Below are positions 3,861 to 63,239 of a stretch of DNA of 64,000 nt, in pieces. Source of the DNA: Bacteroidaceae bacterium (lineage in GTDB: Bacteria > Bacteroidota > Bacteroidia > Bacteroidales > Bacteroidaceae); the NCBI GenBank assembly GCA_017524545.1, contig JAFXVN010000014.1:52300-116299 (forward strand), written 5' to 3'. Numbering within the stretch: position 1 is the first letter of the stretch; every line of letters starts with the position of its first letter. A program made the translations under genes and the position numbers. Below the pieces are notes generated by a model, which saw only the letters and a program-made list of their open reading frames with translations, had not been told where the DNA came from and did no database searches.

Positions 3861-5600
3861 TAAAAGCATCTCATCCACATTGGCACCGGGAGGTGTCATG
3901 GGGAGCACATTGTCTTCTTCCTTCACGGCGCACTGCAGGAGGTAAGGACCATCGGTTTCGAGCATCTCGCGGATGGCTGCGTCGAGGTCTTTCCTGTCGA
4001 TGACCGTCCGGCAGGGGATGTTGTAGCCCGCAGCAATCTTTTCATAGTCGGGGTTGAGCATCGGCGTGAAGGAGTAGCGCTTGTTGAAGAACATGTACTG
4101 CCACTGGCGCACGTTGCCAAGGAAGTTGTTGTTCAAGAGAATCATCTTCACGGGAATCTGGTTCTCCATGATGGTGCCCAGCTCCTGAATGGTCATTTGG
4201 AAGCCGCCGTCGCCGCAGAACATGCAGACCGTCCTTTCTGGAGCACCGTAGCAGGCTCCCATAGCGGCAGGGATGCCGAAGCCCATCGTGCCGCAACCGC
4301 CGCTGGTGACTACCGAACGGGGCTGCGTGAACTTGAAGTAGCGGCAGCCGAACATCTGGTTTTGCCCCACGTCGGTCACGAGAATGGCTTTGTTGTTCGC
4401 CGCTTCGCTCACCTTGCGCACCACTTCGCCCATCAGCAGAGGGCCTTCCGTGGGATGCAGGGCTGCATCAATGACCTTCGTGTATTCCTTTTCCTCGTAA
4501 GGTTTGAAGCCCTCAATCCAAGCCTTGTGGGTAGTCTTTTCCACAAGCTTCGTCACCTCGGGCAATGTCTGCTTGCAGTTGCCAAGGATGGAGAGTGTGG
4601 GTTTCACGTTCTTGCCAAGTTCCGAGGGGTCAATCTCGAAGTGTATAATCTTTGCTTGCTTGGCGTAGGTCTTGAGGTTGCCCGTCACGCGGTCGTCGAA
4701 ACGCATACCCACAGCAATGAGCAGGTCACACTGGTTGGTCATCACGTTGGGGGCGAGATTGCCGTGCATACCAAGCATTCCCATGTAGAGCGGGTGGTCG
4801 GAAGGAGCGGCAGAAAGGCCGAGGAGGGTTGCTGCGAAGGGTATCTGTGCCTTTTCGACGAAGTCGAGCAGTTCCTTGTTGGCTTCTGCAAGCTCTACGC
4901 CTTGGCCGACGAGCATAAATGGCTTCACGCTCTCGTTTATCATGCGAGCCGCTTTCTCGATGGCACCTTCTTCGGGCTGGGGATAAGGGTTGTAGCTGCG
5001 GATGAAATTCACCTTCTGCGGCGCATACTCTATCATGGCCGTCTGTGCATTCTTTGCGAAGTCGAGCACTACAGGGCCTGGCCGTCCGCTTTTGGCGATA
5101 TAGAAGGCACGCGCCACTGCCCAAGGGATGTCTTCGGCGCGACGTATCTGGTAGTTCCACTTCGTGATGGGTTGCGTCACGCCCACGACATCCACTTCCT
5201 GGAATGCGTCTGTGCCAAGCATGGCTGCGCCGACCTGACCGCAGATGACCACCATCGGCGTGGAGTCAATCATGGCATCGGCAACGCCAGTGATGGTGTT
5301 CATCGCACCTGGGCCGCTTGTCACGATGGCACAGCCCACCTTGCCGCTCACGCGGGCATAGCCCTGGGCGGCATGTACTGCCGCCTGTTCGTGACGGACA
5401 AGGATGTGATGCAAGGTATTCTTGTGGTCGTAGAGGGCATCGTAGGTAGGCATGATGGCACCGCCCGGGTAGCCGAAGAGCACATCCACACCCTCATGTT
5501 CGAGGCTCCGCATCAAAGCCTCAGCACCGGAAATCAAACCCGCCTGACCCCCTTCTGAACCTCTCCGAGGGGAGGCATTTATATTGCTTGTTGCTTTCAT
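3846..5600 (-). CDS. ilvB: Acetolactate synthase large (catalytic) subunit
   Basis: This ThDP-dependent enzyme condenses pyruvate with pyruvate or 2-oxobutyrate. The N-terminal domain carries VLFGYPGGAIMPTYDAL and the catalytic Glu in LVRHEQAAVHAAQGYAR. The C-terminal ThDP motif reads CGDGGFQMTIQELGTIMENQIPVK and ends in NNNFLGN. I place the start at the ATG at 5600 (MKATSNINAS); the open frame reaches a TTG three codons earlier. Between that start and the conserved SGAEALMRSLEHEGV lies a GC-rich palindromic insertion (SPRRGSEGGQAG, 5545-5576). A TACCTTTG box 31 bases upstream shows ilvB is transcribed separately from ilvD. ilvH and the thioesterase gene follow. Confidence 0.95.
   Translation of the reverse strand: MKATSNINASPRRGSEGGQAGLISGAEALMRSLEHEGVDVLFGYPGGAIMPTYDALYDHKNTLHHILVRHEQAAVHAAQGYARVSGKVGCAIVTSGPGAMNTITGVADAMIDSTPMVVICGQVGAAMLGTDAFQEVDVVGVTQPITKWNYQIRRAEDIPWAVARAFYIAKSGRPGPVVLDFAKNAQTAMIEYAPQKVNFIRSYNPYPQPEEGAIEKAARMINESVKPFMLVGQGVELAEANKELLDFVEKAQIPFAATLLGLSAAPSDHPLYMGMLGMHGNLAPNVMTNQCDLLIAVGMRFDDRVTGNLKTYAKQAKIIHFEIDPSELGKNVKPTLSILGNCKQTLPEVTKLVEKTTHKAWIEGFKPYEEKEYTKVIDAALHPTEGPLLMGEVVRKVSEAANNKAILVTDVGQNQMFGCRYFKFTQPRSVVTSGGCGTMGFGIPAAMGACYGAPERTVCMFCGDGGFQMTIQELGTIMENQIPVKMILLNNNFLGNVRQWQYMFFNKRYSFTPMLNPDYEKIAAGYNIPCRTVIDRKDLDAAIREMLETDGPYLLQCAVKEEDNVLPMTPPGANVDEMLLEINS
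5545..5576. repeat. GC-rich palindromic element inside ilvB (single)
   Basis: On the plus strand a TGACCCCC arm is followed by the near-palindrome CCTCTCCGAGGGGAGG. It is in frame near the N-terminus of IlvB and belongs to the element family found in 13 genes of this window. Confidence 0.8.
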
Positions 5601-12807: not shown

Positions 12808-15024
12808 CTATTTTATCGGAGTATAGAAGGTTGATGCCGGCAGTCCGTAGGCATTGACGAGGTTGGCATGGGTGAATGGCTGCCAGCCGTAACGGACGGC
12901 TGTGGGGCGTTTGACCTGCTTGGAAGACACATAAACATTGGTACCTTTGACCTTTGCCTCGGCGGGGTGGAAGATGCCGAACTCGTCGGCAAGCTCAAAG
13001 GTGCGAAGCGGTTTGCCGTCGCTGGAGGTAAGCCCCCGGGCAGAGGTGTATTCGAAATGCAGCATTACTCTATGTCCATCGCTTTTCGCCTCCATTAGGA
13101 CAGGGCTTTGCGCTGCCGAGGGATGCTTCGTGAAATAGGGATAGGCATAGACATCTTTCAAGGCCAGGCGAGCCAGACGTTCGCCGACGGGCTGCTTGCG
13201 GCGGGGATGCACGTCGAGCGAGTCGCCCACATCCGTAGTGACTGCCATTCCTGTATAGGGTATCTGCTGGGAGAGCAGGCGTTGGCTGTCGCGGAACCAT
13301 GGCCATGAGGGGCGGTCCAGCGAGCTTAGTTGGACGAAGAGGAAGGGCATGTCGGGGCGTTTCCAATTGCTGCGCCAGCTATCCACCAGCAGGGGGAAGA
13401 GCTTGGCATGAGCGTCCTTGTTGTGCGCATTGGACTCTCCCTGATACCATATCACGCCCCGAATGGGGAACCTCGCAAGCGGCTCAATGCCAGCCTCGTA
13501 CATGTAGCAAGGCTGGTAGGGATGGCGTTGCAGGCTCTCGCCGTTTGAAGCAAAGGGGAAACCCGATTCTTTCTTCAAGGCCAGGGCGATGTTCTTCGCC
13601 CCGCGACCTCTGCACCAGTCCTGGATGAAGTCGTTGTGCAGCCAGTTGTTGAGGATGTTGAGGAATTCAAACTCAAGGGTGCGACGGTCTATCCAGCTCT
13701 CCGTGTTTGTGCCGCCCACAGCGTTGCAGATAAGTCCGATGGGGACTTGCAGGCTGTCCTGCAACATGCGTCCGAAGAAATAGGCGACGGCGGAGAAGTC
13801 GGCAGCTGTCTCCTCTGTGCAGTCCGTCCACTTCGCTGGCTTCAGGTACTTCAGCTCGTTGACTTGTGCCAACGTAAGGCTGTCCCACTCCACATCGCTT
13901 GTGTGGCAAATTGGTGTCATATTGAATAAACGAAGCCCTCCAGCTTTATCGGAAGATAAGTCGCGGCGGTTCTCCCCTCCTTTGGAGGGGCTGGGGGAGG
14001 CTGCCCGAAGCTTGAACTCCATGTTGGACTGTCCCGAGCAGAGCCACACTTCGCCCACCATAACGTCTTGGAAAGTCAGAGTGCGCTGCTTCGTTGAGAC
14101 CGTCAGAGTGTAGGGGCCTCCGGCTTTCAGAGGTTTCAGTTCCACCTCCCAGCGTCCGTCCATGCCAGCAACGGCCTTCACTTTTTCATCTTTTTCCCCT
14201 TTTAACCTTTTTACCTTTTCCCCTTTTAACCTTTCTATAGCTACCGTCACTTCCTCGCTGGCATCGGCTATGCCATGAATGTTCAGCGGCATGTCGCGCT
14301 GAAGCACCATACCGTCGGAATAGACCTGCGGCATTTGCAATCCACCGTAATTGCCCGTAATGAACTGAAAGACAGCCTTTGCCATGATGGCCGCCCCGTC
14401 TTTGTTGGGATGCAAGCCGTCGGGAAAAAGGTCTGGGCGGTTGTAGAGCGGCGTGTGGAAGTCGATAAGCTCAGTGCCGCGAGCCTTTGCCACGAGCGGA
14501 ATCACCTGCTGAATCTCGTCGTGCCAGTCGCGAGTGCCTGACTGGAAGCGGCTGTGGCGGTTCGAGATAGGCGACAGACGTGCAATGATGATGCGAGCCT
14601 TCGGGTTGCGGCCACGCAGAGAATCAATGAGGGCGCAATAGTCCGTGATGAACTCGTCCCTGTAGTTCGGCCAGTTGCGCGGATCGGTGTCGTTGATGCC
14701 AAGGTGTATCACCACGATGTCGCCTGCAAAGTCCAGCGCCGCACGGTACTCCGGCTGCTGGGTGTAAGGCCGGTGCCCATGATTGAGCAACGTGGCACCC
14801 GGGCGTCCGAAGTTGCCCACCTCGAAGCCCTCGCCCAGCATCTTTTGCAACTGCGCCGGATAGCTATCCGCTTCGCGATTCTCTATACCGGTGCCATAGG
14901 TGATGCTGTTGCCCACGCATGCCACTCTCACCTGCCCCGCTATTTGCAGGGACAGGAGAGATAAGCATACGGCAATCAGCGTTTTACATTTGATAATGTC
15001 TTTCATTTCTTTAGATGTTTTCAT
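12808..15024 (-). CDS. Two-domain secreted esterase: SGNH/GDSL domain plus sialate O-acetylesterase domain
   Basis: After a signal peptide, residues 30-220 form an SGNH hydrolase with the nucleophile in CVGNSITYGTGI, the GIND block and the DGLHPNKDGA His block. Residues 230-738 are a sialate O-acetylesterase-type domain with the Ser block CSGQSNMEF and WYQGESNAHNKDAH. It should remove O-acetyl groups from sialic acid or related sugars so that the lyase encoded immediately upstream (stop and start abut at 15024/15025) can act. Two repeats sit inside it in frame. One is a GC-rich element (13971-14003, SPSPSKGGEN). The other is an AAAAGGTTAAAAGG-class stretch (14169-14237) encoding LKGEKVKRLKGEKDEKVK between the domains. 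Confidence 0.88.
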   Translation of the reverse strand: MKTSKEMKDIIKCKTLIAVCLSLLSLQIAGQVRVACVGNSITYGTGIENREADSYPAQLQKMLGEGFEVGNFGRPGATLLNHGHRPYTQQPEYRAALDFAGDIVVIHLGINDTDPRNWPNYRDEFITDYCALIDSLRGRNPKARIIIARLSPISNRHSRFQSGTRDWHDEIQQVIPLVAKARGTELIDFHTPLYNRPDLFPDGLHPNKDGAAIMAKAVFQFITGNYGGLQMPQVYSDGMVLQRDMPLNIHGIADASEEVTVAIERLKGEKVKRLKGEKDEKVKAVAGMDGRWEVELKPLKAGGPYTLTVSTKQRTLTFQDVMVGEVWLCSGQSNMEFKLRAASPSPSKGGENRRDLSSDKAGGLRLFNMTPICHTSDVEWDSLTLAQVNELKYLKPAKWTDCTEETAADFSAVAYFFGRMLQDSLQVPIGLICNAVGGTNTESWIDRRTLEFEFLNILNNWLHNDFIQDWCRGRGAKNIALALKKESGFPFASNGESLQRHPYQPCYMYEAGIEPLARFPIRGVIWYQGESNAHNKDAHAKLFPLLVDSWRSNWKRPDMPFLFVQLSSLDRPSWPWFRDSQRLLSQQIPYTGMAVTTDVGDSLDVHPRRKQPVGERLARLALKDVYAYPYFTKHPSAAQSPVLMEAKSDGHRVMLHFEYTSARGLTSSDGKPLRTFELADEFGIFHPAEAKVKGTNVYVSSKQVKRPTAVRYGWQPFTHANLVNAYGLPASTFYTPIK
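13971..14003. repeat. GC-rich palindromic element inside the esterase gene (single)
   Basis: The palindrome CCCCTCCTTTGGAGGGG is followed by a CTGGGGGAGGCT arm. It is in frame (SPSPSKGGEN on the minus strand). Confidence 0.9.
14169..14237. repeat. AT-rich short tandem repeat in frame in the esterase gene
   Basis: Copies of CCCCTTTTAACCTTTTTACC encode a Lys/Glu-rich linker (LKGEKVKRLKGEKDEKVK) in the esterase. The class resembles the intergenic GGTGAAA/GGTAAAA repeats. Confidence 0.8.
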
Positions 15025-16119: not shown

Positions 16120-17529
16120 ATGGAACTTGACATGCTGACTGCCGTTTCGCCCATCGACGGACGATACAGGGGCAAGACAGAGGCACTGGCTGCATACTTC
16201 TCGGAGTACGCCCTCATCCGCTATCGTGTCCGCGTCGAAGTGGAGTATTTCATCGCTCTCATCCATCTGCCTCTGCCGCAGCTGAAGGACTTCCCCCTCA
16301 GCGACGAGCAGTTGCGCGACATCTACCTGGGCTTCACGGAGCAGGATGCCCAGCGCGTCAAGGACATTGAGGCAGTCACCAATCATGATGTCAAGGCAGT
16401 GGAGTATTTCATTAAGGAGAAATTTGAGACCCTCTCTAACTCTCCCTTAAAGGGAGAGGATTCTGGGAATGAAGCCTCCCCTTTAAGGGAAGGTTTGGTA
16501 GGGTCTTTGGAGCTTTACAAGGAGTTCATCCACTTCGGTCTCACCAGTCAGGACATCAACAATACCAGCGTACCTCTGAGCATCAAGGAGGCACTGGAGC
16601 AGGTCTATTATCCTCTTGTGGAGGAACTCATCGCCCAATTGCAGCAGTATGCCGAGGAATGGAAGGAGGTGCCGATGCTCGCCAAGACGCACGGACAGCC
16701 TGCCAGCCCGACTCGTTTGGGCAAGGAGGTGATGGTCTTCGCCTATCGCCTGCAGCGGCAGCTCGACATGCTGCGGGCATGTCCGCTTACGGCTAAGTTC
16801 GGCGGCGCGACGGGCAACTTCAATGCCCACCATGTGGCCTTCCCTCAGTACGACTGGCGGGAGTTCGGGCGTAAGTTCGTCAAAGAGAGCCTTGGCCTCG
16901 AGCGCGAGGAATATACGACGCAAATCAGCAATTACGACTGCCTCGGAGCCGTGTTCGATGCCATGAAGCGCATCAACACCATCATCATCGACCTCGACCG
17001 CGACTTCTGGCAGTACGTCTCGATGGAGTACTTCCGCCAGAAGATTAAGGCTGGCGAGGTGGGTTCGAGTGCTATGCCGCACAAGGTCAACCCCATCGAC
17101 TTCGAGAACTCCGAGGGCAACCTGGGCATTGCCAATGCCATCCTCGCGCACCTCAGCCAGAAGCTGCCCATCAGCCGCTTGCAGCGTGACCTCACGGACA
17201 GCACCGTGCTTCGCAATGTCGGCGTTCCGATGGGACACATGCTCATCAGCATACAGAGCACCTTGAAAGGCTTGCGCAAGCTTGTCCTCAACGAGGAAGC
17301 CATTCGCCGCGACCTCGAAGGCTGCTGGGCTGTCTGTGCCGAAGCCATCCAAACCATCCTCCGCCGCGAAGCCTATCCGCATCCATACGAGGCGCTCAAG
17401 GCACTCACACGCACTGGCAAAGGCATCGACGAGGCAACAATCAAGAATTTTATAGAAGAACTGAATGTCGGCGAATCCGTGAAGGAAGAGCTGCGCCAGA
17501 TAACACCATACACATATACAGGAATATAA
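16120..17529 (+). CDS. purB: Adenylosuccinate lyase
   Basis: This fumarase-superfamily enzyme acts twice in purine synthesis, on SAICAR and on adenylosuccinate. The N-terminal TAVSPIDGRYRGKTEALAAYFSEYALIRYRV is typical. The signature loop reads GSSAMPHKVNPIDFENSEGN, and KTHGQPASPTRLGKE carries a catalytic His. Between EKFETL and ELYKEFIHFGLTSQDINN the protein has about 25 extra residues (SNSPLKGEDSG through SPLREGLVGS), encoded by an inverted pair of GC-rich elements at 16428-16505. This lies just before the active-site TSQD segment, yet the frame is intact. purB, rluB and asnS follow one another on the plus strand. Confidence 0.95.
   Translation: MELDMLTAVSPIDGRYRGKTEALAAYFSEYALIRYRVRVEVEYFIALIHLPLPQLKDFPLSDEQLRDIYLGFTEQDAQRVKDIEAVTNHDVKAVEYFIKEKFETLSNSPLKGEDSGNEASPLREGLVGSLELYKEFIHFGLTSQDINNTSVPLSIKEALEQVYYPLVEELIAQLQQYAEEWKEVPMLAKTHGQPASPTRLGKEVMVFAYRLQRQLDMLRACPLTAKFGGATGNFNAHHVAFPQYDWREFGRKFVKESLGLEREEYTTQISNYDCLGAVFDAMKRINTIIIDLDRDFWQYVSMEYFRQKIKAGEVGSSAMPHKVNPIDFENSEGNLGIANAILAHLSQKLPISRLQRDLTDSTVLRNVGVPMGHMLISIQSTLKGLRKLVLNEEAIRRDLEGCWAVCAEAIQTILRREAYPHPYEALKALTRTGKGIDEATIKNFIEELNVGESVKEELRQITPYTYTGI
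16428..16505. repeat. GC-rich palindromic elements inside purB (inverted pair)
   Basis: The left unit is GACCCTCTCTAACT plus CTCCCTTAAAGGGAG. The right unit is its reverse complement in kind (CCCCTTTAAGGG plus GGTAGGGTC). About 15 bases separate them. In frame. Confidence 0.92.
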
Positions 17530-18036: not shown

Positions 18037-18063
18037 GGTACTCTCCCAGAGGGGGAGCTAAGG
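18037..18063. repeat. Degenerate GC-rich element inside rluB
   Basis: GGGTACTCTCCCAGAGGGGG and a following AGCTAAGG resemble one arm and core of the intragenic element family. It encodes GYSPRGGAKG at the end of the repeat tail. It is the weakest member of the set. Confidence 0.5.
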
Positions 18064-18875
18064 GCGGCTTTCGTCCTCGCACCGCCGGCTATAATCCTCA
18101 TGCCAAGTACAGCATGAAGAAGCAGATTGAGTACAAGGAGACACATGTCGATCCAGACGAACCCATCCGCCTGAACAAATACCTCGCCAATGCCGGCGTA
18201 TGCAGCCGTCGCGAGGCCGACGAGTTCATCGAGGCAGGCGTGGTGAAGGTCAATGGTGTGGTTGTCACAGAGCTTGGCACAAAGGTGAAGCGCTCCGACG
18301 AGGTTCACTTCCACGACCAGTTGGTCAGCATCGAGAAGAAGGTCTATGTCCTGCTCAACAAGCCGAAGGACACCGTCACCACAAGCGACGACCCGCAGAA
18401 CCGCAAGACGGTGATGGACCTCGTGAAGGGTGCTTGCCGCGAACGCATCTATCCCGTTGGCCGCCTCGACCGCAACACTACAGGTGTGCTCCTGCTCACC
18501 AACGACGGCGAGCTGGCCACCAAGCTCACACATCCCCAGTTCCTCAAGAAGAAGATTTATCATGTCTTCCTCGACAAGAACGTCACAGCTGCCGACATGA
18601 AGCAGATAGCAGACGGCATCGAACTGGAGGACGGCGAGATACATGCAGATGCTATTGAGTATGCCAACGAGACAGACCGCAAGCAGGTGGGCATCTAAAT
18701 CCATAGCGGCCGTAACCGCATCGTGCGCCGCATCTTCGAGCACCTCGGCTACAGGGTCATCAAGCTCGACCGCGTCTATTTCGCCGGTCTGACCAAGAAG
18801 AACGTCCGCCGAGGCGACTGGCGCTTCCTTACAGAGAAGGAAGTCAGCATGTTGAGGATGGGAGCCTTTGAATAA

Positions 18876-42468: not shown

Positions 42469-43941
42469 CTATCCCACGATTAACTTGTCTATCAGCACCG
42501 TTGGCAAGCCTTGGCTGACGGTCACTTTCTGTCCCTCCTTGCCGCACATGCTGGCACTGTGGTCGATGCGGAGATTGTCGCCCACCATGCTGATGCGGCG
42601 AAGTGCCTCTGGACCGTTGCCAATGATGTTGAGGTCGCGCAGGGGGCGTGTCAGCTTGCCGTCTTCGATGAGGTAGCCAGTCTTCATAAAGAAGGTGAAG
42701 TCGCCCGCGCCAATCTGCACCTGGCCGTTGGTGAAGGACTGCGCATAGATGCCCCGCTTCACACTTCGTATGATGTCTTCCTCCTTCGCTTCGCCCGGCA
42801 GCATGTAGGTGGAGCGCATTCGTGGGATGGGCATACAGCGGAAGCTCTCTCGCCGGCCGTTGCCCGTGGGTTTTACGCCGAAGTGCTTGGCACTGATGCG
42901 GTCGTAAAGGTAGCTGTTGAGCCTTCCGTTCTCAACGAGCACCGTCTTTTGCCCTGGGATGCCCTCGTCGTCGAAGCGAAGCATTCCTGCATCGTTTGGC
43001 AGAGTGCCATCATCGACGATGCTGATGCTCGGGTGGCATATCTCTTTGCCGAGTTGTCCTGTGAAGATGCTGTCACCAGTGCGGATGAAGTCGGCCTCGA
43101 AAGCATGGCCGATGGCTTCGTGCAGGAGGATGCCGCTGCTGCCCGCAGCCATCACCACTGGCATCTCGCCTCCCTCTATCTGCGAGGCGGAGAAGAGGAA
43201 GTCGGTGCGCTGGATGGCCTCGCTGACCACTTCTTCTATCAGTTTGTCTGTGAAGAAGTCCGCTCCCATCTGCATCATCCGCGATGCAAAGCCCATCTGT
43301 GTCTGTCCGCCTCGCTCCATGACGATGTTCACGGAGAGCGACGTGCGTGGGCGAAAGTCGTGGAAGGCCGTGCCGTCGCTTGCAGCGAACTGCACCTCCT
43401 GCATCCGCTGCGAGATATAGGCTTTTACCTTGATGACGGAGGCATCGAGAGCGTAGGCTTTCTCCTCAATTCCAAGCAGTAGTTTGCGAGTTTGTGGAGG
43501 CGGAAGTGAATGCGCAGGCTTTCCTGTTTCCTCAAATGTAGTGGTAAACGGCTGTGGCTTGACTCCCTCTCCTTTGGAGAGGGTAGGGGTGAGGCTTTTC
43601 GCAGCTTTCATCAATGCCTCATCACTCAAGTCCATTGTGTAGGCATAGCCTGTCTCTGTGCCTCGTACCGCACGGATGCCTGCACCATAGAGACACACCT
43701 GCTGTGCCTGGCTCACCTTGCCATCTTGCAGCACCATGCTGCTGATGTTGGTATCCTCGATGAAGATGTCGGCATAGTCAGCACCGCCGGAGAGGGCAGC
43801 AGAGAGAAGCCTCCCCCGTCCCCTCCCAAGGAGGGGTGAACGGCGAAGATGCTCCCTCCCTTTAAGGGAGGGTCGGGGTGGGTCTGTGGGGCAATTACTT
43901 GTCAAGGTATTCTGCCAGTGTTTTGCCGAGTTCTTCGCCAC
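42469..43941 (-). CDS. tldD: TldD metalloprotease subunit
   Basis: This is the zinc-bearing partner of TldE. The HExxxH motif is His274-Glu275-His279 (LLHEAIGHAFEADF). IEGGEMPVVMAAGSSGI and the C-terminal MVGDNLRIDHSASMCGKEGQ also fit. The conserved part begins at about residue 46 (LLSAALSGGADYADIFIED). Everything upstream is unusual: residues 19-45 are an inverted pair of GC-rich elements, and residues 1-16 overlap the 3' end of the upstream TlpA-like gene in another frame. The real start is therefore uncertain and may lie in or just before the element. A second, single element (43561-43595) encodes SLTPTLSKGEGVK at 115-127. Confidence 0.9.
   Translation of the reverse strand: MAKNSAKHWQNTLTSNCPTDPPRPSLKGREHLRRSPLLGRGRGRLLSAALSGGADYADIFIEDTNISSMVLQDGKVSQAQQVCLYGAGIRAVRGTETGYAYTMDLSDEALMKAAKSLTPTLSKGEGVKPQPFTTTFEETGKPAHSLPPPQTRKLLLGIEEKAYALDASVIKVKAYISQRMQEVQFAASDGTAFHDFRPRTSLSVNIVMERGGQTQMGFASRMMQMGADFFTDKLIEEVVSEAIQRTDFLFSASQIEGGEMPVVMAAGSSGILLHEAIGHAFEADFIRTGDSIFTGQLGKEICHPSISIVDDGTLPNDAGMLRFDDEGIPGQKTVLVENGRLNSYLYDRISAKHFGVKPTGNGRRESFRCMPIPRMRSTYMLPGEAKEEDIIRSVKRGIYAQSFTNGQVQIGAGDFTFFMKTGYLIEDGKLTRPLRDLNIIGNGPEALRRISMVGDNLRIDHSASMCGKEGQKVTVSQGLPTVLIDKLIVG
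43561..43595. repeat. GC-rich palindromic element inside tldD (single)
   Basis: GACTCCCTCTCCTTTGGAGAGG plus a GTAGGGGTGAGGC arm, sense relative to the gene. In frame (LTPTLSKGEG). Confidence 0.92.
43807..43885. repeat. GC-rich palindromic elements at the 5' end of tldD (inverted pair)
   Basis: AGCCTCCCCCGTCCCCTCC plus AAGGAGGGG, about 13 bases, then GCTCCCTCCCTTTAAGGGAG plus GGTCGGGGTGGGTC. It lies between the stop of the TlpA-like gene and the conserved part of TldD. Confidence 0.93.
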
Positions 43942-48781: not shown

Positions 48782-50258
48782 AAACAGCCTTGTACTTAGG
48801 CACAAATGCCTTGAGCAGGAGCCAGCCGAGCAGGTAGGCCAAGGCGCAGTAGATGAAGATGATGAAGTAGCCTGCGGGCTTGCCTGTGAAGCCGAGGAAC
48901 TGCATCTGTGTCTTGTCGGCATAATCAAAGAGGTCGCCGCTAATCCAGTTGATGAGGAAAGAGCTGATGCCGCCTGCCATGCCGTTGATGCCCGTCATGG
49001 TGCCGACGGCTTTCTTCGGGAATAGGTCGCTGCCTACCGAGAAGAGGTTGGCCGACCAGCTCTGGTGTGCCGCACCCGCCAGGCCAATCAGGATGACGGG
49101 GAACCAGTAGCTATAGGCTCCGAGAGGCTGTGCAAAGAGCGTCAGCAGGGGGAACAGCGTGAAGATGAACATGGCCTTGAGGCGTGCATCGTAGGGATGC
49201 AGACCTGTTCGGTTGACGATAATCGTAGGCAGTTTGCCGCCATAGATGGAAAGCATGGTGATGGCATAGAGCACGAAGATGAGCAGCATGGCTGTCGGGT
49301 TGTCACTCTTCAAGCCATAGACATCGCTGATGTAGGCTGGTGTCCAGAAGAGGAAGAACCACCACACGCCATCGGTGATGAGCTTTGCCAGGAAGATGCC
49401 CCACGTCTGCGGGAAGGTAAGGAACTTGATGAAGGGAAGCCCCCCTCCATCCTCCCCCCGAGGAGGGAGGCTTTCTTCGCTAAGTTGGCTGCTTCCCTTC
49501 TCCCCTCCTCCTCGGGGGAGGGGTTGGGGGAGGGGGCTGTCCTGCTGTATATACGCCAGCTCTGCTTCGTTCACCTGCTTGCACTCTTCGGGCTTCTTAT
49601 AAATGAACACCCAGAGTCCCAACCACAAGAAGCCGAGCGCACCGATGATGAGGAACGCCATTTCCCAGCCATAGAACTTGGCAATCAGTGGAATGCAGAC
49701 AGGCGCGATGAGTGCGCCGATGGTGCAGCCGCTATTGAAGATGCTGGTGGGGAAGGCGCGGTCTTTCTTCGGGAAGAACTCTGCCGTTACCTTGATGGCA
49801 CAGGGGAAGTTGCCGCTCTCGCCCAAGCCGAGCACGATGCGGCAGACGATGAAGAACCAGGCACTGACCGAAGCAATGACGGCTGTCGAGGTGCCGACGG
49901 CGTTAATGAGGTCTTCCTTGCCCTCCAATCCGAGCCATGCAGCGGTGGCAACGCCACAGAAGGCGTGCATACAGGCACCCAACGACCAGATGCCGATGGC
50001 CCATAGGTAACCCTTCTTTGTACCTATCCAGTCCATGAAGCGGCCGCTGAAGAGGTTGCCGATGGCATAGACGATGGAGAAGATGGCGGCAATGCGACCA
50101 TAGTCGGCATCCGTCCAGTGGAACTCGGGCGCGATGAAGTCTTTCCATGTCAGGGATAGCACCTGACGATCCATGTAGTTGATGGTTGTGGCAAGGAACA
50201 ACATGCCACAGATGACCCAACGGTAGTTGGTCATCTTACTTGATGGGCTGTTTTGCAT
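48774..50258 (-). CDS. MFS hexuronate transporter (ExuT-like)
   Basis: I take the ATG at 50258 (MQNSPSSKMTNYRWVICGM); the open frame extends 45 bases further up but past the promoter box. The protein of about 494 residues has 12 hydrophobic helices and MFS hallmarks such as NYMDRQVLSL in helix 1 and the GRFMDWIGTKKGYLW loop. It resembles the ACS family of hexuronate/galactonate symporters, and its operon confirms uronate uptake. An inverted pair of GC-rich elements (49437-49542) adds about 35 residues (SPLPQPLPRGGGE through LPPRGEDGGG) in the central cytoplasmic loop between helices 6 and 7, a place that tolerates insertions. Confidence 0.9.
   Translation of the reverse strand: MQNSPSSKMTNYRWVICGMLFLATTINYMDRQVLSLTWKDFIAPEFHWTDADYGRIAAIFSIVYAIGNLFSGRFMDWIGTKKGYLWAIGIWSLGACMHAFCGVATAAWLGLEGKEDLINAVGTSTAVIASVSAWFFIVCRIVLGLGESGNFPCAIKVTAEFFPKKDRAFPTSIFNSGCTIGALIAPVCIPLIAKFYGWEMAFLIIGALGFLWLGLWVFIYKKPEECKQVNEAELAYIQQDSPLPQPLPRGGGEKGSSQLSEESLPPRGEDGGGLPFIKFLTFPQTWGIFLAKLITDGVWWFFLFWTPAYISDVYGLKSDNPTAMLLIFVLYAITMLSIYGGKLPTIIVNRTGLHPYDARLKAMFIFTLFPLLTLFAQPLGAYSYWFPVILIGLAGAAHQSWSANLFSVGSDLFPKKAVGTMTGINGMAGGISSFLINWISGDLFDYADKTQMQFLGFTGKPAGYFIIFIYCALAYLLGWLLLKAFVPKYKAVSE
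49437..49542. repeat. GC-rich palindromic elements inside the transporter gene (inverted pair)
   Basis: AAGCCCCCCTCCAT plus CCTCCCCCCGAGGAGGGAGG, about 30 bases, then CTCCCCTCCTCCTCGGGGGA plus GGGGTTGGGGGAGGGGGCT. In frame. Confidence 0.93.
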
Positions 50259-50467: not shown

Positions 50468-51829
50468 ATGAAAAGACGTGAGTTTTTGCGAAATGCGGCT
50501 ATAGTTGCAGCGACACAAACCCTCTATAGCTCTCCCTTGAAGGGAGAGGAGCTTAAAGCTTCCCTTATGAAGGGAGAGCAAGAAAACCTTCCTCCTCGGG
50601 GGCCTGTCGGGGAACTTCTCATCGACAGCGAGCCTGTCCTGCAGAACTATGCAGAGACAAGCATGGGCATCGCTTTCAGCGTGACGGACTGGGCAAACGG
50701 CTATGTCATCTATGGCGAGAAGCCCGACCTGAGCGACGGACGGAAGGTGTGGTGCGGCGGCTACCGTATGACGGCAATGGACAACGAGGTCATACAGGTT
50801 CGGCTGACAGGCTTGAAGCCCTATACATTATATTATTATAAGATAGGTGCCGACCGCATCGAGTACAAGGACGGCTACCACATCCGCATCACGGGCAACG
50901 AGGAACGGGAGCAGGTCTATTCTTTCCGCACCGCCGGCAAGGAGGCAAAGTCGCACTTCTGCGTCATCAACGACACGCACGCCAAATGGGCGGCATTCGG
51001 CCCAGCAATCGACAAGGTGATGCAGCTGCAGCCAAGCTGTGTCATTTGGAACGGCGATGCCTGCAATACCGAAGAGACTATTGCGGCACAGAAGCGCATC
51101 TTCCTCAAGCCGGAGATAGAGCGGAAGGACTTCGCTGCCAACATTCCCTACCTCTTCTGCCCTGGCAACCACGACAACCGTGGCTTGGCAAACCGACATC
51201 TTGAACGCATCTGGATGTACCGCCAGCCCGAGGAACGTCAGCCTCGCGACTGGGACTTGGGGCGCAACTTCGCTGTCCGCATGGGCGACATTGCTTTCAT
51301 TGGTCTCGATACAGGCGAGGACAAGCTGGATGGCAACCCCAAGTTCTGCAACCTCTTCGTCAGCGAACCCTACCGCGTCGCGCAGCAGGCTTGGCTTCGC
51401 GATGCGCTCCGGCAGCCTGAAATAAAGAAAGCCCCCTATCTTGTCGCCCTTTGCCACATCCCTCTCTACGACCCGCGCCCGGACGCAAATCCCGGCGACA
51501 TCTATCCCGCCGATGTGGACGACAAGCACAAGAACAACTTCGCCGCATGGCAGCGCACATGCTCGAAGCTCTGGGGACCGTTGCTCGAGAAGGCTGGCTG
51601 CCAGCTCCTCCTCGCCGCTCACCAGCATGTTTATCGGCTCCACAAACCGAACGATGAGCACAAGTGGATGCAGATAATAGGCGGCGGCCCCGACATGTCG
51701 GGCGAGAACAAAAAGCATTTCCCCACCGTGATAGAGGGCGAGGTCAGGGACGGCCAGCTCGTCATCACCGTCCACAACATCTACACCGGCACCGTGCAGG
51801 AGACCATAACAATCAGCAAGAGAAGATAA
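50468..51829 (+). CDS. Secreted metallophosphoesterase with FN3-like N-terminal domain
   Basis: The N-terminus MKRREFLRNAAIVAATQTL has a twin-Arg-like motif, but the signal region is interrupted at residues 17-48 by GC-rich element sequence (SSPLKGEELK, SLMKGEQENLPPRG). Residues 50-155 resemble the purple acid phosphatase FN3-like domain (QVRLTGLKPYTLYYYKIG). The metallophosphatase blocks are VINDTHA, WNGDACN, CPGNHDNRG, CHIPLYD and AAHQHVYR, giving a complete two-metal site. It should hydrolyse phosphate esters outside the cytoplasm. Whether the altered signal still exports it is unclear. It is a single-gene unit, divergent from the hexuronate operon. Confidence 0.88.
   Translation: MKRREFLRNAAIVAATQTLYSSPLKGEELKASLMKGEQENLPPRGPVGELLIDSEPVLQNYAETSMGIAFSVTDWANGYVIYGEKPDLSDGRKVWCGGYRMTAMDNEVIQVRLTGLKPYTLYYYKIGADRIEYKDGYHIRITGNEEREQVYSFRTAGKEAKSHFCVINDTHAKWAAFGPAIDKVMQLQPSCVIWNGDACNTEETIAAQKRIFLKPEIERKDFAANIPYLFCPGNHDNRGLANRHLERIWMYRQPEERQPRDWDLGRNFAVRMGDIAFIGLDTGEDKLDGNPKFCNLFVSEPYRVAQQAWLRDALRQPEIKKAPYLVALCHIPLYDPRPDANPGDIYPADVDDKHKNNFAAWQRTCSKLWGPLLEKAGCQLLLAAHQHVYRLHKPNDEHKWMQIIGGGPDMSGENKKHFPTVIEGEVRDGQLVITVHNIYTGTVQETITISKRR
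50519..50612. repeat. GC-rich palindromic elements in the signal region of the phosphoesterase gene (degenerate pair)
   Basis: ACCCTCTATAG plus CTCTCCCTTGAAGGGAGAGG, then TTCCCTTATGAAGGGAGAGC, then a CTTCCTCCTCGGGGG block with a GTCGGGG arm. In frame, more degenerate than the other pairs. Confidence 0.8.
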
Positions 51830-57544: not shown

Positions 57545-58621
57545 TTATTTGATGTTGCCTACGCTGATGAGGTACTCTGCAATCTGCACGGCATTGAGTG
57601 CGGCACCCTTCTTTATCTGGTCGCTGACGAGCCAGAACGTGATGCCATTTGGGTTGGCGAGGTCCTTGCGGACACGTCCCACAAAGACATCGTCGCAGTT
57701 CTCGTGGAAGAGGGGCATCGGGTAGGGGAAGACCCCCTCTAGCTCCCCCTTAAAGGGGGAGGACGATGCTCCCCTCCCTTTAAGGGAGGGGTTGGGGGTG
57801 GGTCTGTTGTCTTCCAACTGCAAGCCCTTTCCTTCGCGGACGGCCTGCTGGAACTCTTCGACGCTGACGGGACGCTCTGTCTCGGCCCAGACGCTCTCGC
57901 TGTGGCAGCGGAGGCTGGGGACGCGGACGCACATGGCACTCACTTCGCAGTCGGTGTGCATGATTTTCTTCGTCTCGTTGTACATCTTCATCTCCTCCTT
58001 CGTGTAGCCGTTGTCGCAGAAGACATCAATCTGGGGAATCACGTTGAAGGCCAGCTGATAGGCGAACTTCTCGACTGTCGGTTTCTCGCCGGCAAGCACC
58101 TGGCGGTACTGCTCGTAGAGCTCTGCCATAGCTGCTGCGCCTGCGCCGCTGGCGGCCTGATAGCTGGCGACGTGTACGCGCTTGATGTGCGACAGGTTCT
58201 CCAAGGCTTGCAGGGCAACGACCATCATAATGGTGGTGCAGTTGGGGTTGGCGATGATGCCTCGGGGACGGTTCAGAGCATCCTCGGCGTTGCATTCGGG
58301 AACGACCAGAGGCACGTCCTCGTCCATGCGGAAAGCGGAGGAATTGTCTATCATCACGGCTCCGTATTTAGTGATGGTCTCGGCAAACTCCTTGCTCGTG
58401 CCGCCTCCGGCACTGGTGAAGGCAATATCGACGCCCCGGAAGTCGTCGTTATGCTGCAGGAGCTTCACTTCTATCTCCTTGCCCCGGAATGTGTATTTAC
58501 GCCCCGCGCTGCGCTGGCTGCCGAAGAGCAGCAGTTCGTCGATGGGGAAATTTCTCTCGTCCAGCACGCGCAGGAACTCTTGTCCTACGGCACCGCTTGC
58601 GCCTACAATTGCAACACGCAT
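57545..58621 (-). CDS. asd: Aspartate-semialdehyde dehydrogenase
   Basis: This enzyme reduces aspartyl phosphate to aspartate semialdehyde for lysine, threonine, methionine and diaminopimelate synthesis. The NADP motif is [16 protein letters not shown], the catalytic Cys lies in [12 protein letters not shown], and the His lies in [13 protein letters not shown]. An inverted pair of GC-rich elements (57731-57805) adds about 25 residues at 272-297 ([11 protein letters not shown] through [10 protein letters not shown]) between LQLEDN and [17 protein letters not shown], next to a normally conserved YPMP segment. An essential household enzyme thus carries the insertion without a frame change. Confidence 0.95.
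57731..57805. repeat. GC-rich palindromic elements inside asd (inverted pair)
   Basis: GACCCCCTCTAG plus CTCCCCCTTAAAGGGGGAG, a short gap, then CTCCCCTCCCTTTAAGGGAG plus GGGTTGGGGGTGGGTC. In frame. Confidence 0.94.
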
Positions 58622-58961: not shown

Positions 58962-61900
58962 ATGAATACCTCAGCCCTTATAACCGACCCCACTTGGATA
59001 TTCTCTGTGGTGTTGGGCATTATCCTGTTGGTGCCTCTGCTGTTCCGGCGGCTCAGGATACCGCCTGTCATCGGGCTTATCCTGGCGGGCATCCTGGTGG
59101 GGCCGTACGGTTTCAATGTGTTGGCTCACGACAGCTCATTCTCGCTCTTCGGACAGGTGGGCATCTACTATATCATGTTCCTGGCCGGTCTGGAGCTTGA
59201 GATGGGCAGCGTGGAGCATTTCGGGCATAGCGGACTCCGTTTCGGTGTCCTTACGTTTTCCATTCCCTTTGTGCTCGGCATCGTGTCGAGCGTGATGCTG
59301 GGCTACGGCTTGTCAACAAGCCTTCTGCTGGCCTGTATCTATGCCAGCCATACCCTCGTCTCATACCCCATAGTGGGACGCTACGGCCTGAACCGCCATC
59401 CTGTGGTGGTGGTCTGCGTGGTTGCCACGGCGTTTGCGCTCTTTGCAGCCCTGCTCGTGCTTGCTGTTGTGGTGGGCAGACAGGACCCCAATACCACATG
59501 GCTTACATGGCTGCTCTTTGGTCTGCGATGTGCGCTCTATGTCGGCGCCGTCGTCTTTTTCTTCCCACGCATGGGTCGTTGGTTCCTGCGTCACGTCGAG
59601 GACAGCGTCATGCAGTTCATCTTCATTCTGACACTCGTATTCCTCAGCGCTTCGCTGGCCAAGATGGTGGGGCTTGAGGGCTTGCTTGGCGCATTCCTGG
59701 GCGGTTTGGTTGTCAACCGCCTTATCCCCAAGACCAGCCCCCTGATGTCGCGCCTCGAGTTCGTGGGCAATGCCCTTTTCATCCCATACTTCCTCATCGG
59801 CGTAGGCATGATTATCGACCTCGGCATCCTTGTGCGGCATCCGGAGACGCATGTGTCGGTTGCTGTGATGGTGCTGGTCGGAACCTTTTCCAAGTGGCTG
59901 GCCTCTGCCGTCATGGCATGGACGATGGGCGAGAACCGGCATGGCATGTGGCTCATGTTCGGCCTGACCAACGCCCATGCAGCCGGCGCACTTGCCATCG
60001 TCACCATAGGCACCGCACCGGGCGTGCAGCTTATGAGCGACGAGATGTTGAGCGGCACCGTCATGCTCATCCTCGTCAGCTGCATCATCAGCAGCATTGC
60101 CACCAGCCGAGGCGCCAAACAGATTGCCTTGAGCGACACGTCCCTCGATGACAACCGAGGTTCCTATCACGGCAAGTGCCTCATTACCTACAGCCAGGAG
60201 GACAATGTCGATGTGATGACACAGCTTGCCATCCTCATCCGCAACCCTTTCATACCAGACAGCCTGATGGGACTGCATGTCTCGTTGGAAGACCCACCCC
60301 AACCTTCCCTCAAAGGGAGGGAGCAGGAACTCTCCATTAAGGGGAAGCAAGGAAGGGTTCTGCTCGAGAAGGCACAGCTGATAGCCGCTTCCGCCGATGT
60401 GCCTATGGCAACGCTCTACCGCATGAGTACCAGCATCGCAGGCGGCATCCTGCACACAATGACCGAGTACGACTGCGGCGAGGTGGTCGTCTGCTTGAAC
60501 GACCGCACGACAGGCACGGCAAAGTCCTCCCTTGGCCCTATTATAGACAATGTGATAAGTGGCAGCCACCGTGAGGTGATTGCGGTGCGCAGCATCGTGC
60601 CTCCCGGCACCATCAGGCGTGTGATTGTCGCCGTCCCCCAGAAGGCGGAGTACGAGGTGGGCTTCTACAAATGGTTAGAGCATATCTGCCGTATCGGCGA
60701 GGAACTGGACTGCCATCTGGAATACCACGCACATGCCGACACCTTGCCATATATAAAAGGATATATGGCTAAGAAGCACAGCCACGTCCGCACTCAGTAT
60801 GCCGAGATGAACCGCTGGATGCAGTTCCTCAACCTCCGGGACGACATGAATCTGGGTTGTATGTTAGTCGCCGTCACGGCCAGACCGGGCTTTATCTCCT
60901 ATCAGAACCAGTTCGAGGAGTTGCCGATGCTCATCCACCGATACTACAGCCATGTGAGTGTGATGATTCTCTATCCCGACCAGTGGGGCGAACCGCAAGA
61001 GAGCCTTTCCGTCTTCACGCCTAACGGCACCGCCGTACAGCGTCAGCCGCGTTCCATCGGGGACTTGCTTCGCCGCTGGCTCTTCACCGTCCGTCGCTCT
61101 ACAGCAGTCGTATTGGCTTTGTTCCTTACACAACTTTCAATTTTCAACTTGCAACTTTCAACTGCCTCAGCCCAGCGTCCGCGCTTCGACAAGATGTCGC
61201 CGATGGTGCGATTAAAGGCATACAGCCCCCTTCCCGCTCCCCCTTTGGGGGAGGGCTTGAAACAGCGAAGTGGCACTCCCCCAAAGGGGGAGCGGGGAGG
61301 GGGCTTTCTTGCTCTTGTTCAAGCATCGGACGAAGATGTCCTTCTTCAGCACGGTTGCCGCACATACGCCCATTGGGGAGACATCTATGCAGCGGCAGTC
61401 CCCAAGTCGGTACTTGCCGCGCTTTCGCTTCGGCCGGAGGTGACGCGCATCGAATGCGGCAGGGTATGCGATGCCTTGACCGACACGTCTGCCGTCATCA
61501 CCCATTCCGACATCCTTCGCACTCCAACCTCTTACCGCCCGGCATATACAGGCAAAGGCGTTGTGGTGGGCGTGATGGACATAGGCTTCGACCTGACCAA
61601 TCCGACATTCTACAGCCGTGACCTCAGCACCTATCGCATCCGCTCATTCTGGGACATGCTGGACTATGATGAAGTGAAAAGTGAAAAGTTAAAAGTGAAA
61701 AATGATGCCTACGGCATGGAGTTGCCGGTGGGCAAAGCCTATCGGTCAAGCGCGGACATCCTCGACAAAGCCTGTTCTTCGGACAGCCGCCTGCAGTATC
61801 ATGGCTCTCACACCGCAAGCACAGCGGCTGGCAGCGGCTACGACTCGCCCTATATCGGCATGGCTCCCGATGCCGACATCTGCCTTGTCTCCAATTGCGT

Positions 61901-63239
61901 TTCCAGCGACAAGGAACTGGTGCCGGACTCGCTATGGGACTTCTACGGGCCAGTAGCCGACTTGCTGGGCTTCGAGTACATCTTCCGCTATGCCGACAGT
62001 GTCGAAAAGCCTTGCGTCATCAACTTCAGCGAGGGTTCGCACGAAGACCTTTGGGGCGAGGCGCAGCTCTACAGCACTGTCCTCGACAGCCTGGTGAGAC
62101 CAGGGCGAATCATCTGTGCATCGGCCGGCAACCAAAGCGTCTATGGCACCTATATGCATAAGCCGTTCGGACAGGAACGTGCCGCGTCGATTATCGGGCC
62201 GTCAGGCAACACATCTTATTATATGCTTCGCAGTCAGGGCGACTTCTGCATCACGTTCGAGGTCATGGAGTCCCCGTCGCAGAAACTTCTTAGCTACGAG
62301 ATGCCGCTTGCCGACATCCTTGCCACAGAGGACAGCCTGCTCGTCGATACCGTCACGGCTGGCAACTTCACGTTCCAACTCACTTTTGGCTGCTACCCCT
62401 GCTGCTACGACCCCAATCAGTTGGTGACAGACTTCGTCATCACCAAGATGGGTAAGGGACACCTCACTTCCATAAGGATGGGCCTCGGGGTCAACGGCGA
62501 GGAATCGGAGGTCGAGGTCTATCAGCAGATTGGCTGGCTTTTGGACCTGCCCGAATACCCCGACTACCAAGATGCAGAAGCTACACACAACATCCACTTC
62601 CCCGGCTCTGCGCCAAGCGTCATCTGTGTGGGTTCGACATCCTACAGGACTGGCTTCTACAACTGCGACGGCATTTGGATGGACGAGAACTATGGCAGTG
62701 GCGGCGAGGTGGCTACTTATAGCAGTCGTGGCCCCACGCTGTCGGGCATCATCAAGCCCGATGTGCTGGCTCCAGGCACCAATGTCGTGGCGGCCTTTAA
62801 CAGCTTCTTCCGGGAGGAGAGCACCTATTTGTCGGAATATGACATCGGCCGATACACATTTGGCGGTCGCAACTACTCATGGAGCGTGCAAGGAGGCACA
62901 AGCATGGCGTGCCCCGTCGTCGTAGGCATCATAGCCCAATGGATGGAGGCTTTCCCGACGCTGACACGCGAGCAGATTATCGAAACCTTTGAAGCCACTT
63001 GCCGACACCACGACCCTTTACTCCCATACCCGAACAACGACTATGGCTATGGCGAAATAGATGCCGAGGCAGGACTAAACTATCTGATGGGGCACTATAG
63101 CCTCACCCCAACCCTCTCCAAGAGAGAGGGAGAAAAGAATGTCTATGACCTTAGCGGCAGGAGAGTGGAACGCCCATCAAGAGGCATATATATCGTATCA
63201 GATGAGGAAGGCAACCGAAAGAAGGTGCTTTTTAGGTAA
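58962..63239 (+). CDS. Cation:proton antiporter joined in frame to a subtilisin-like protease
   Basis: The ATG at 58962 fits the promoter. Residues 1-400 are a CPA2/Kef-type antiporter with many membrane helices (RRLRIPPVIGLILAGILVGP, FLAGLELEM). Residues 415-690 are a cytoplasmic UspA-like region. No stop follows. Instead residues 703-736 resemble a signal peptide (LLRRWLFTVRRSTAVVLALF, ending ASAQ), and a subtilase follows with Asp873 (GVMDIGFD), His947 (HGSHTAST) and Ser1314 (GGTSMACPVV), ending in the shared terminus (VYDLSGRRVERPSRGIYIV). A real fusion would be membrane-anchored with the protease outside; reinitiation at a TTG at 61065 is an alternative. Five repeats lie inside: GC-rich pairs at 60291 and 61223, a single at 63099, and AT-rich repeats at 61130 and 61673. 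Confidence 0.87.
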   Translation: MNTSALITDPTWIFSVVLGIILLVPLLFRRLRIPPVIGLILAGILVGPYGFNVLAHDSSFSLFGQVGIYYIMFLAGLELEMGSVEHFGHSGLRFGVLTFSIPFVLGIVSSVMLGYGLSTSLLLACIYASHTLVSYPIVGRYGLNRHPVVVVCVVATAFALFAALLVLAVVVGRQDPNTTWLTWLLFGLRCALYVGAVVFFFPRMGRWFLRHVEDSVMQFIFILTLVFLSASLAKMVGLEGLLGAFLGGLVVNRLIPKTSPLMSRLEFVGNALFIPYFLIGVGMIIDLGILVRHPETHVSVAVMVLVGTFSKWLASAVMAWTMGENRHGMWLMFGLTNAHAAGALAIVTIGTAPGVQLMSDEMLSGTVMLILVSCIISSIATSRGAKQIALSDTSLDDNRGSYHGKCLITYSQEDNVDVMTQLAILIRNPFIPDSLMGLHVSLEDPPQPSLKGREQELSIKGKQGRVLLEKAQLIAASADVPMATLYRMSTSIAGGILHTMTEYDCGEVVVCLNDRTTGTAKSSLGPIIDNVISGSHREVIAVRSIVPPGTIRRVIVAVPQKAEYEVGFYKWLEHICRIGEELDCHLEYHAHADTLPYIKGYMAKKHSHVRTQYAEMNRWMQFLNLRDDMNLGCMLVAVTARPGFISYQNQFEELPMLIHRYYSHVSVMILYPDQWGEPQESLSVFTPNGTAVQRQPRSIGDLLRRWLFTVRRSTAVVLALFLTQLSIFNLQLSTASAQRPRFDKMSPMVRLKAYSPLPAPPLGEGLKQRSGTPPKGERGGGFLALVQASDEDVLLQHGCRTYAHWGDIYAAAVPKSVLAALSLRPEVTRIECGRVCDALTDTSAVITHSDILRTPTSYRPAYTGKGVVVGVMDIGFDLTNPTFYSRDLSTYRIRSFWDMLDYDEVKSEKLKVKNDAYGMELPVGKAYRSSADILDKACSSDSRLQYHGSHTASTAAGSGYDSPYIGMAPDADICLVSNCVSSDKELVPDSLWDFYGPVADLLGFEYIFRYADSVEKPCVINFSEGSHEDLWGEAQLYSTVLDSLVRPGRIICASAGNQSVYGTYMHKPFGQERAASIIGPSGNTSYYMLRSQGDFCITFEVMESPSQKLLSYEMPLADILATEDSLLVDTVTAGNFTFQLTFGCYPCCYDPNQLVTDFVITKMGKGHLTSIRMGLGVNGEESEVEVYQQIGWLLDLPEYPDYQDAEATHNIHFPGSAPSVICVGSTSYRTGFYNCDGIWMDENYGSGGEVATYSSRGPTLSGIIKPDVLAPGTNVVAAFNSFFREESTYLSEYDIGRYTFGGRNYSWSVQGGTSMACPVVVGIIAQWMEAFPTLTREQIIETFEATCRHHDPLLPYPNNDYGYGEIDAEAGLNYLMGHYSLTPTLSKREGEKNVYDLSGRRVERPSRGIYIVSDEEGNRKKVLFR
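60291..60363. repeat. GC-rich palindromic elements inside the antiporter part (inverted pair)
   Basis: GACCCACCCCAACC plus TTCCCTCAAAGGGAGGGAG, then a degenerate inverse unit (CTCCATTAAGGGGAAG plus CAAGGAAGGGTTC). In frame in the UspA-like region (PPQPSLKGREQ). Confidence 0.88.
61130..61162. repeat. AACTTTC-class repeat at the antiporter-protease junction
   Basis: CAACTTTCAATTTTCAACTT and GCAACTTTCAACTG encode QLSIFNLQLSTA inside the signal-peptide-like segment. The class is otherwise intergenic. Confidence 0.85.
61223..61305. repeat. GC-rich palindromic elements after the protease signal-like segment (inverted pair)
   Basis: AGCCCCCTTCCCG plus CTCCCCCTTTGGGGGAG, about 22 bases, then ACTCCCCCAAAGGGGGAG plus CGGGGAGGGGGCT. 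In frame. Confidence 0.94.
61673..61702. repeat. GTGAAAA-class repeat in frame in the protease part
   Basis: GAAGTGAAAAGTGAAAAGTT and AAAAGTGAAAAATG encode EVKSEKLKVKN. The class is otherwise intergenic. Confidence 0.85.
63099..63132. repeat. GC-rich palindromic element before the C-terminal module (single)
   Basis: An AGCCTCACCCCAA arm plus CCCTCTCCAAGAGAGAGGG. It encodes SLTPTLSKREG in frame, in the linker before VYDLSGRRV. Confidence 0.9.

What the first reader, a model, noticed from the sequence alone, without database searches (positions are those of the whole stretch)
5545..63132. A family of GC-rich palindromic elements that lives inside genes, in frame
I count about 17 loci in 13 genes (ilvB, sialate esterase, purB, rluB, clpB twice, CotH-like, M16, pmbA, tldD twice, hexuronate transporter, phosphoesterase, asd, antiporter-protease three times). 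The unit is about 33 bp: an arm such as GACCCCCTCTGA or AGCCTCCCCCGA, then a palindrome such as CCCCTCCAAAGGAGGGG or CTCCCTTAAAGGGAG. All copies I found lie inside open frames and none between genes, although gene boundaries are full of other repeats. The peptides (SPLKGED, PSPSKGGE, PSLKGRE, LPLWGSA) look alike across unrelated proteins. This is the reverse of REP elements, which are extragenic, and recalls the in-frame palindromic elements of Rickettsia. I do not know a description of it for Bacteroidales.
Basis: partly seen in the sequence, partly recalled or inferred. Interest (0 to 1): 0.92.

Follow-up and report, generated by a model that had tools for sequence, protein, structure and literature searches.

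The report
In-frame palindromic repeats in gut Bacteroidales
In a genus of gut-type bacteria, short GC-rich mirror-image DNA repeats sit inside many genes without breaking the reading frame, and some protein loops are filled by different repeats in related species, so these repeats are a natural record of how proteins tolerate inserted sequence.

Summary
The window holds 21 related units at 15 sites, all in open frames. Such palindromes are at 19 places against 0.6 in shuffles.

Three details change. (1) The unit is an inverted pair, arms outward (42 of 42 pairs; 33 of 42 measure 70-100 bp). (2) Intergenic copies exist: 18 of 95 sites in 862 kb, at twice the genic density, and 16 of the 18 lie within 9 bp of a stop codon or overlap it. 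So the family is not the reverse of REPs. It resembles REP dimers that also live in genes, like Rickettsia palindromic elements and the intragenic REPs of PMC3733652. (3) Clean insertions of a multiple of three were not seen: at PurB, Asd and LigA native loop bases are missing, and at ClpB site 2 there is no length change.

The striking extra result: the same loop is filled by different repeats in different species (Asd, LigA, PurB).

Verdict: a new variant of a known kind. The mobilising enzyme was not identified; a Y1/RAYT-like gene does not track the copies. The searches named gave no description for Bacteroidales, but one listed Porphyromonas repeat paper was not opened.

The parts
13972..14003 (-). 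single unit, type III, in sialate esterase-like gene (12808-15024 -)
16427..16506 (+). complete inverted pair (80 bp AGACCC...GGGTCT) in purB; stands where congeners have a native 14-bp loop
25472..25507 (+). single unit, type I, in clpB (between the two ATPase domains); site filled by another class in some congeners
26346..26377 (+). single unit, type III, in the second ATPase half of clpB; same length as in 16 of 29 congeners (replacement, no insertion)
27212..27243 (+). single unit, type III, in CotH/LTD-domain gene (26742-31793 -)
39303..39398 (+). inverted pair, type IV, in M16 peptidase gene
41298..41331 (-). single unit, type IV, in PmbA/TldE-like gene
43562..43597 (-). single unit, type II, in TldD-like gene
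43807..43886 (+). inverted pair at the N terminus of the TldD-like frame, upstream of its first Pfam domain
49437..49536 (+). inverted pair in the middle of an MFS transporter gene
50516..50551 (+). single unit, type I, near the N terminus of a phosphoesterase
57730..57803 (-). inverted pair in asd; stands where congeners have a native 8-bp loop core
60289..60324 (+). single unit, type I', behind the exchanger domain of the exchanger-subtilase frame
61223..61306 (+). inverted pair, type IV, between the exchanger and subtilase domains
63098..63133 (+). single unit, type II, behind the subtilase domain
5546..5576 (-). possible degenerate unit at the ilvB N terminus (SPRRGSEGG); under the model threshold
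   Evidence: read; not found
18037..18067 (-). possible degenerate unit in rluB-like gene; under the model threshold
   Evidence: repeat family D5, read; not found

Best explanation
A non-autonomous, REP-dimer-like (REPIN-like) repeat family spreads by copying through the genomes of this Bacteroidales genus. The copying unit is an inverted pair of arm-plus-palindrome modules tagged AGAC or AGCC, mostly 70-100 bp, that can fold into a long or branched hairpin. It lands in genes and between genes. Because it is GC-rich and poor in stop codons, copies in protein loops, linkers and termini are tolerated when the net change keeps the frame; others are purged. Copies outside genes persist mainly just behind stop codons. 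Shown: family, pairing, in-frame residence, patchy spread, absence from orthologues, loss of native loop bases at the sites aligned. Inferred: copying as one unit by an unidentified enzyme, and selection as the filter.
For: 42 of 42 neighbouring pairs are arms-outward (43 printed, one is a single palindrome read twice). The whole 80-bp purB unit matches dozens of other places in congeners, the best at 93%, many at equal length; the LigA unit reaches 96% in G081, whose ligA is 83% identical. 77 of 95 sites are in genes. Element-free orthologues: PurB 30 of 30 aligned; 26 of 29 congeners with the native 14-bp purB loop and 24 of 29 with the native 8-bp asd core; PDB relatives. Hairpins of -44 to -77 kcal/mol, z -3.2 to -9.8, for the 4 units folded. 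3.25 of 6 frames are open per unit against 2.41 after base shuffling, 32 units. AT-rich period-7 repeats of the same genome are 25 times denser outside genes (0.72 against 0.028 per kb, 35 straddling ones left out), the GC-rich units only 2.1 times.
Against: No transposase is tied to the family: G005 and G020 are rich in copies (66 and 94) but have no Y1_Tnp match and no relative of the RAYT-like protein, while copy-poor G015, G016 and G018 have relatives of it. ClpB site 2 is a same-length replacement, which simple insertion does not explain. No strain-level fresh insertion was seen; the nearest of the genomes searched differ by about 8-18% in these genes.
Confidence: 0.68

Rival explanations
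1. Loop replacement by templated conversion: replication or repair switches onto a dispersed repeat copy and back, so that a native loop is swapped for a repeat, with or without length change. Several unrelated repeat families serve as templates.
For: Native loop bases are missing at PurB (14 bp), Asd (8 bp) and LigA site 1 (most of about 37 bp) although the units there have both tagged ends. ClpB site 2 carries the unit without length change, and the nearest congener is 21 of 32 identical to it (16-21 of 32 over the 16 same-length congeners). AT-rich repeats stand in the same loops.
Against: Insertion followed by in-frame deletion of surplus loop gives the same end state; no intermediate was seen. 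Tagged ends of whole units point to a defined mobile unit.
Confidence: 0.25
2. A RAYT/TnpA-REP-like Y1 transposase of the genus mobilises the units.
For: Four Y1_Tnp reading frames of 335-408 aa in the own genome, three over the family cut-off; close relatives (78-85% identity over the matched parts) of one of them in five copy-rich congeners G086, G013, G130, G069, G081.
Against: Absent from copy-rich G005 (89% complete) and G020 (62% complete); relatives in copy-poor G015, G016, G018. In 16 loci around such genes units lie within 2 kb in 5, and none abuts the gene; the nearest are about 300 bp (L261) and 440 bp (L003) away. Tags are AGAC/AGCC, not GTAG/CGTC.
Confidence: 0.2
3. The inserts are kept because they help: as mRNA hairpins or as useful peptide linkers.
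For: Stable hairpins; 16 of 18 non-coding sites sit at stop codons, where REPs are thought to act on mRNA (PMC3733652, passages).
Against: Unrelated host proteins, several reading frames, orthologues without the insert in most congeners.
Confidence: 0.06
4. Chance palindromes or composition effect.
For: None found.
Against: 19 places against 0.6 in shuffles; 1 marginal hit in 344 kb of other genomes.
Confidence: 0.01

Closest known systems
Rickettsia palindromic elements (RPE); the original papers are recalled or cited in lists only, described in passages of PMC10969869 and PMC2229807
   Same: Palindromic, about 100 bp, inverted-repeat ends, in frame inside conserved genes and also between genes.
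   Different: Unrelated host phylum; here modular AGAC/AGCC-tagged pairs; several frames used; 77 of 95 sampled sites in genes; loops filled by different repeats in relatives. No sequence comparison with RPEs was made.
Intragenic GTAG/CGTC REPs (PMC3733652: passages, section 15 read)
   Same: Dimers of opposite orientation, 20-30 aa encoded, copies close behind stop codons and supplying stop letters, different REPs at about the same site of recB in two Xanthomonas species.
   Different: Tag is AGAC/AGCC; most sites are genic here whereas that paper finds most REPs intergenic; no transposase link found.
REPINs (PMC3116915, search listing and start of abstract only)
   Same: Two inverted REP modules as the replicating unit (recalled).
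   Different: REPINs are recalled as extragenic and RAYT-dependent.

Membership tests
Rickettsia palindromic elements | in-frame residence in unrelated protein genes | tested here: met
   77 of 95 sites in genes; orthologues lack it
Rickettsia palindromic elements | inverted-repeat element of 105-146 bp (size as given in PMC2229807) | tested here: inconclusive
   inverted pairs with recognised tags 68-144 bp, 28 of 32 under 105
Rickettsia palindromic elements | Rickettsia host | tested here: not met
   closest purB relatives listed are Bacteroidaceae and Prevotellaceae
Rickettsia palindromic elements | sequence homology to an RPE family | not tested
   no RPE sequence was compared
REP (GTAG/CGTC) | short palindrome with GTAG or CGTC tag | tested here: not met
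   tag is AGAC or AGCC
REP (GTAG/CGTC) | extragenic location | tested here: not met
   only 18 of 95 sites outside genes
REP (GTAG/CGTC) | dimers in opposite orientation | tested here: met
   42 of 42 neighbouring pairs
REP (GTAG/CGTC) | extragenic copies close behind stop codons | tested here: met
REP / REPIN | linked RAYT (Y1) transposase | tested here: inconclusive
   present in some copy-rich genomes, absent in G005 and G020; no unit abuts the genes
MITE | terminal inverted repeats | tested here: met
   AGACC...GGTCT or AGCC...GGCT ends recognised in 32 of 42 pairs
MITE | target-site duplication | tested here: inconclusive
   none apparent at PurB and Asd, where native bases are lost; not tested systematically

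The most novel reading that the evidence does not exclude
This genus has a general process that swaps surface loops of ordinary enzymes for dispersed repeats: at the same loop, related species carry GC-rich hairpin pairs, unrelated AT-rich repeats (some inverted), or the native loop, with native bases removed and the frame kept, and sometimes with no length change. That would be template-driven loop replacement, not transposition followed by tolerance.
Probability: 0.28. Interest if true: 0.86.

Novelty: new variant of a known kind. Interest (0 to 1): 0.63.

Why it matters
In-frame palindromes are best known (recalled) from intracellular Rickettsia and Wolbachia, plus intragenic REPs in some other species. 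Here is a genus of gut-type Bacteroidales with an estimated 360 sites in one genome (80 sites in the 798 kb outside the window, scaled to 3.6 Mb; probably somewhat high), and with matches in 91 of 120 congeners at very different numbers. Many species share the same genes with and without inserts, so insertion tolerance of ordinary enzymes, the fate of inserts and the exchange of loop content can be measured from natural data. The inserts also warn annotators: odd peptides such as SNSPLKGED or DPPQPSLKGRE in conserved proteins are repeats, not domains.

Tried and rejected
Rejected: chance; a known RNA family (no Rfam match at the gathering threshold in the window); the 33-bp module as the whole unit; 'never intergenic'; a fixed length rule: in-gene pair lengths leave, modulo 3, for the AGAC type 2 in 8 and 1 in 3 of 11, for the AGCC type 0, 1 and 2 in 6, 6 and 3 of 15 (11 other pairs of the 43 had an end tag that my pattern did not recognise).

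Led nowhere: two DNA patterns in viral contigs gave no exact match, so no phage carrier was seen. Paper searches listed no paper whose title or abstract start describes such repeats in genes of Bacteroidales; PMC5771137 (repeats of Porphyromonas gingivalis) was listed but not opened, and the library lacks most subscription journals. The flank logo shows only a weak preference for A or C before the tag. PyrC alignments were too ragged to use, and that output was cut, so ClpB site 1 was seen there only in part.

Dropped rows and weak points: of 154 rows I kept 117 (E <= 0.045); one row over an already listed palindrome (L066 5203) was left out too, and one kept row (L038 10453) is a palindrome already listed on the other strand. 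The 40 stretches were chosen at round coordinates but on contigs that one search had shown to hold copies, so the genome estimate may be high. Genes were called by my own hexamer script; I corrected three calls by hand (TldD, phosphoesterase start, L042 start). The labels 'GC-rich' or 'AT-rich' filler in congeners, and 'non-coding' for G026, are by eye. Genomes of the genus were drawn from a larger group, so nearer relatives may exist.

Full report
What is there. A scan of the window for GC-rich palindromes and a covariance model built from eight copies give 21 full-length units at 15 sites in 11 genes. Hosts were named by Pfam for ten frames (two of them are the ilvB and rluB frames, whose copies stay under the threshold) and by PDB relatives for PurB, Asd and ClpB. 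A model-free count finds 19 places with pyrimidine-armed palindromes; 40 dinucleotide shuffles average 0.575 with a maximum of 3. The second model, built from 19 window copies, finds one marginal match in 344 kb around purB in 80 other records but 150 in the own genome, where 150 of 1630 candidates were scored.

Architecture. Each module is an arm (AGACC... or AGCC...) plus a palindrome of about 17-22 bp. In 862 kb (window plus 40 stretches) I used 138 rows at 95 sites. One search prints 43 neighbouring pairs within 130 bp, all arms-outward; one of them is a single palindrome read on both strands, so 42 of 42. 33 of the 42 measure 70-100 bp, the longest 146. The pair behaves as the unit: the 80 bp of the purB copy match dozens of places in congeners, the best at 93%, many at equal length and others with gaps. 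By a crude classification 41 of 42 pairs combine halves of one tag class. Four pairs folded as RNA give a long hairpin (three) or a branched one (asd), -44 to -77 kcal/mol, z -3.2 to -9.8.

Where it sits. 77 of 95 sites are inside genes and 18 outside; per kb that is 0.099 against 0.209. In the window it is 15 of 15, in the 40 other stretches 62 of 80. So the family is not exclusively genic, but 81% of sites are genic because 90% of the DNA is. Of 76 in-gene sites placed, 7 are within 40 codons of the start, 14 within 60 codons of the end, and 55 are internal. Units are stop-poor: 3.25 of 6 frames open against 2.41 after base shuffling, over 32 pairs; most of these are in genes, so the comparison is not free of selection.

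Comparison with orthologues. In PurB, none of the 30 orthologues aligned (of 80 fetched) has the insert; five native residues stand where the window's protein has 27, and 8 of the 30 have a loop 1-8 residues longer. Between the matched parts the best PDB relative of PurB has 2 residues where the query has 25, and that of Asd 5 where the query has 27. At DNA level 26 of 29 congeners keep a 14-bp loop in purB and 24 of 29 an 8-bp loop core in asd; the window copies have 80 and 74 bp there, net +66 in both. Native bases are therefore missing, not just pushed apart. LigA site 1 has 37 bp between anchors in four of 22 congeners and 76 bp here. At ClpB site 2 the unit has exactly the length of the native stretch in 16 of 29 congeners, which are 16-21 of 32 identical to it. 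Pair lengths are a multiple of three in only 6 of 26 tagged in-gene pairs, so the frame is kept by the net change, not by the unit.

The same loops are refilled. In asd, G130 has a GC-rich pair of another subtype at the same place, and G086, G020 and G081 have unrelated AT-rich repeats, two of them inverted (by eye). In purB, G089 has an AT-rich repeat there. In ligA site 1, at least three of 22 congeners show GC-rich pairs of other types and at least five AT-rich repeats (by eye). In two of eleven sites comparable with G043, that genome has AT-rich repeats where the window's species has the GC-rich pair, and in one it has the same pair. These are probably loops that tolerate insertion; they could also mark a process that swaps loops.

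Spread. 91 of 120 congeners have a match at E <= 1e-4 and 29 none. Related modules occur in one of 16 genomes of other families of the order, G026 (16 matches); the 4 of these 16 places that I fetched look non-coding by eye, one right at a stop codon and one just before a start. The LigA unit is 96% identical to a copy in G081, whose ligA is 83% identical.

How it may move. The own genome has four Y1_Tnp frames. Close relatives of one of them occur in five copy-rich congeners, but none was found in copy-rich G005 or G020, and copy-poor G015, G016 and G018 have relatives too. In 16 loci around such genes, units lie within 2 kb in five and none abuts the gene; the nearest are about 300 bp (L261) and 440 bp (L003) away. 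The mover is not identified.

Comparison with the literature. PMC3733652 (section 15 read whole, passages) reports intragenic REPs, many as dimers encoding 20-30 residues, REPs close behind stop codons and supplying stop letters, and different REPs at about the same place in recB of two Xanthomonas species. PMC10969869 and PMC2229807 (passages) describe RPEs in frame in Rickettsia genes. The present family works like these. It is not a member of the GTAG/CGTC REPs by tag, and membership in RPEs was not tested by sequence. Not in what I read: the phylum, the tag, the majority residence in genes, and the turnover of loop fillers across a genus. My searches listed no description for genes of Bacteroidales; one listed paper on Porphyromonas repeats (PMC5771137) was not opened.

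Verdict. Real, well supported, a new variant of a known kind. The most novel reading, loop replacement by template, is not excluded and can be tested with strain-level genomes.

Noticed in passing
window 58941-63239: One open frame joins a sodium/hydrogen exchanger and a subtilase domain; an AT-rich repeat coding LSIFNLQLSTASAQ (61122-61163) and a GC-rich pair lie between them, so the fusion may be repeat-made or a read-through of two genes.
   Followed up: no
window 61671-61701, 2782-2807, 14183-14237: AT-rich short-period repeats of the intergenic kind also occur inside genes (e.g. VKSEKLKVKND).
   Followed up: partly
window 42469-43941 and 43895-45010: The TldD-like frame begins with the GC-rich pair and overlaps the next frame, which looks thioredoxin-like by eye; its true start codon is unclear.
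   Followed up: no
window 58764-58851: Tandem 22-bp repeats between asd and the exchanger gene.
   Followed up: no
window 20622-20705: Four tandem 21-bp AT-rich repeats behind a gene that looks like asparaginyl-tRNA synthetase by eye.
   Followed up: no
window 17823-18017: Gly/Tyr-rich repeats (GGYQPR) at the N terminus of the RluB-like protein.
   Followed up: no
L001-L004: Four long Y1-transposase-like frames (335-408 aa) in the own genome, a RAYT-like family with many divergent copies in the genus.
   Followed up: partly
L143 (G013 ligA), L125 and L133: Further dispersed-looking repeats fill the same LigA loop (GCCCCTTGCTCCATGCCCC type; CAATGTTCAAT type).
   Followed up: no
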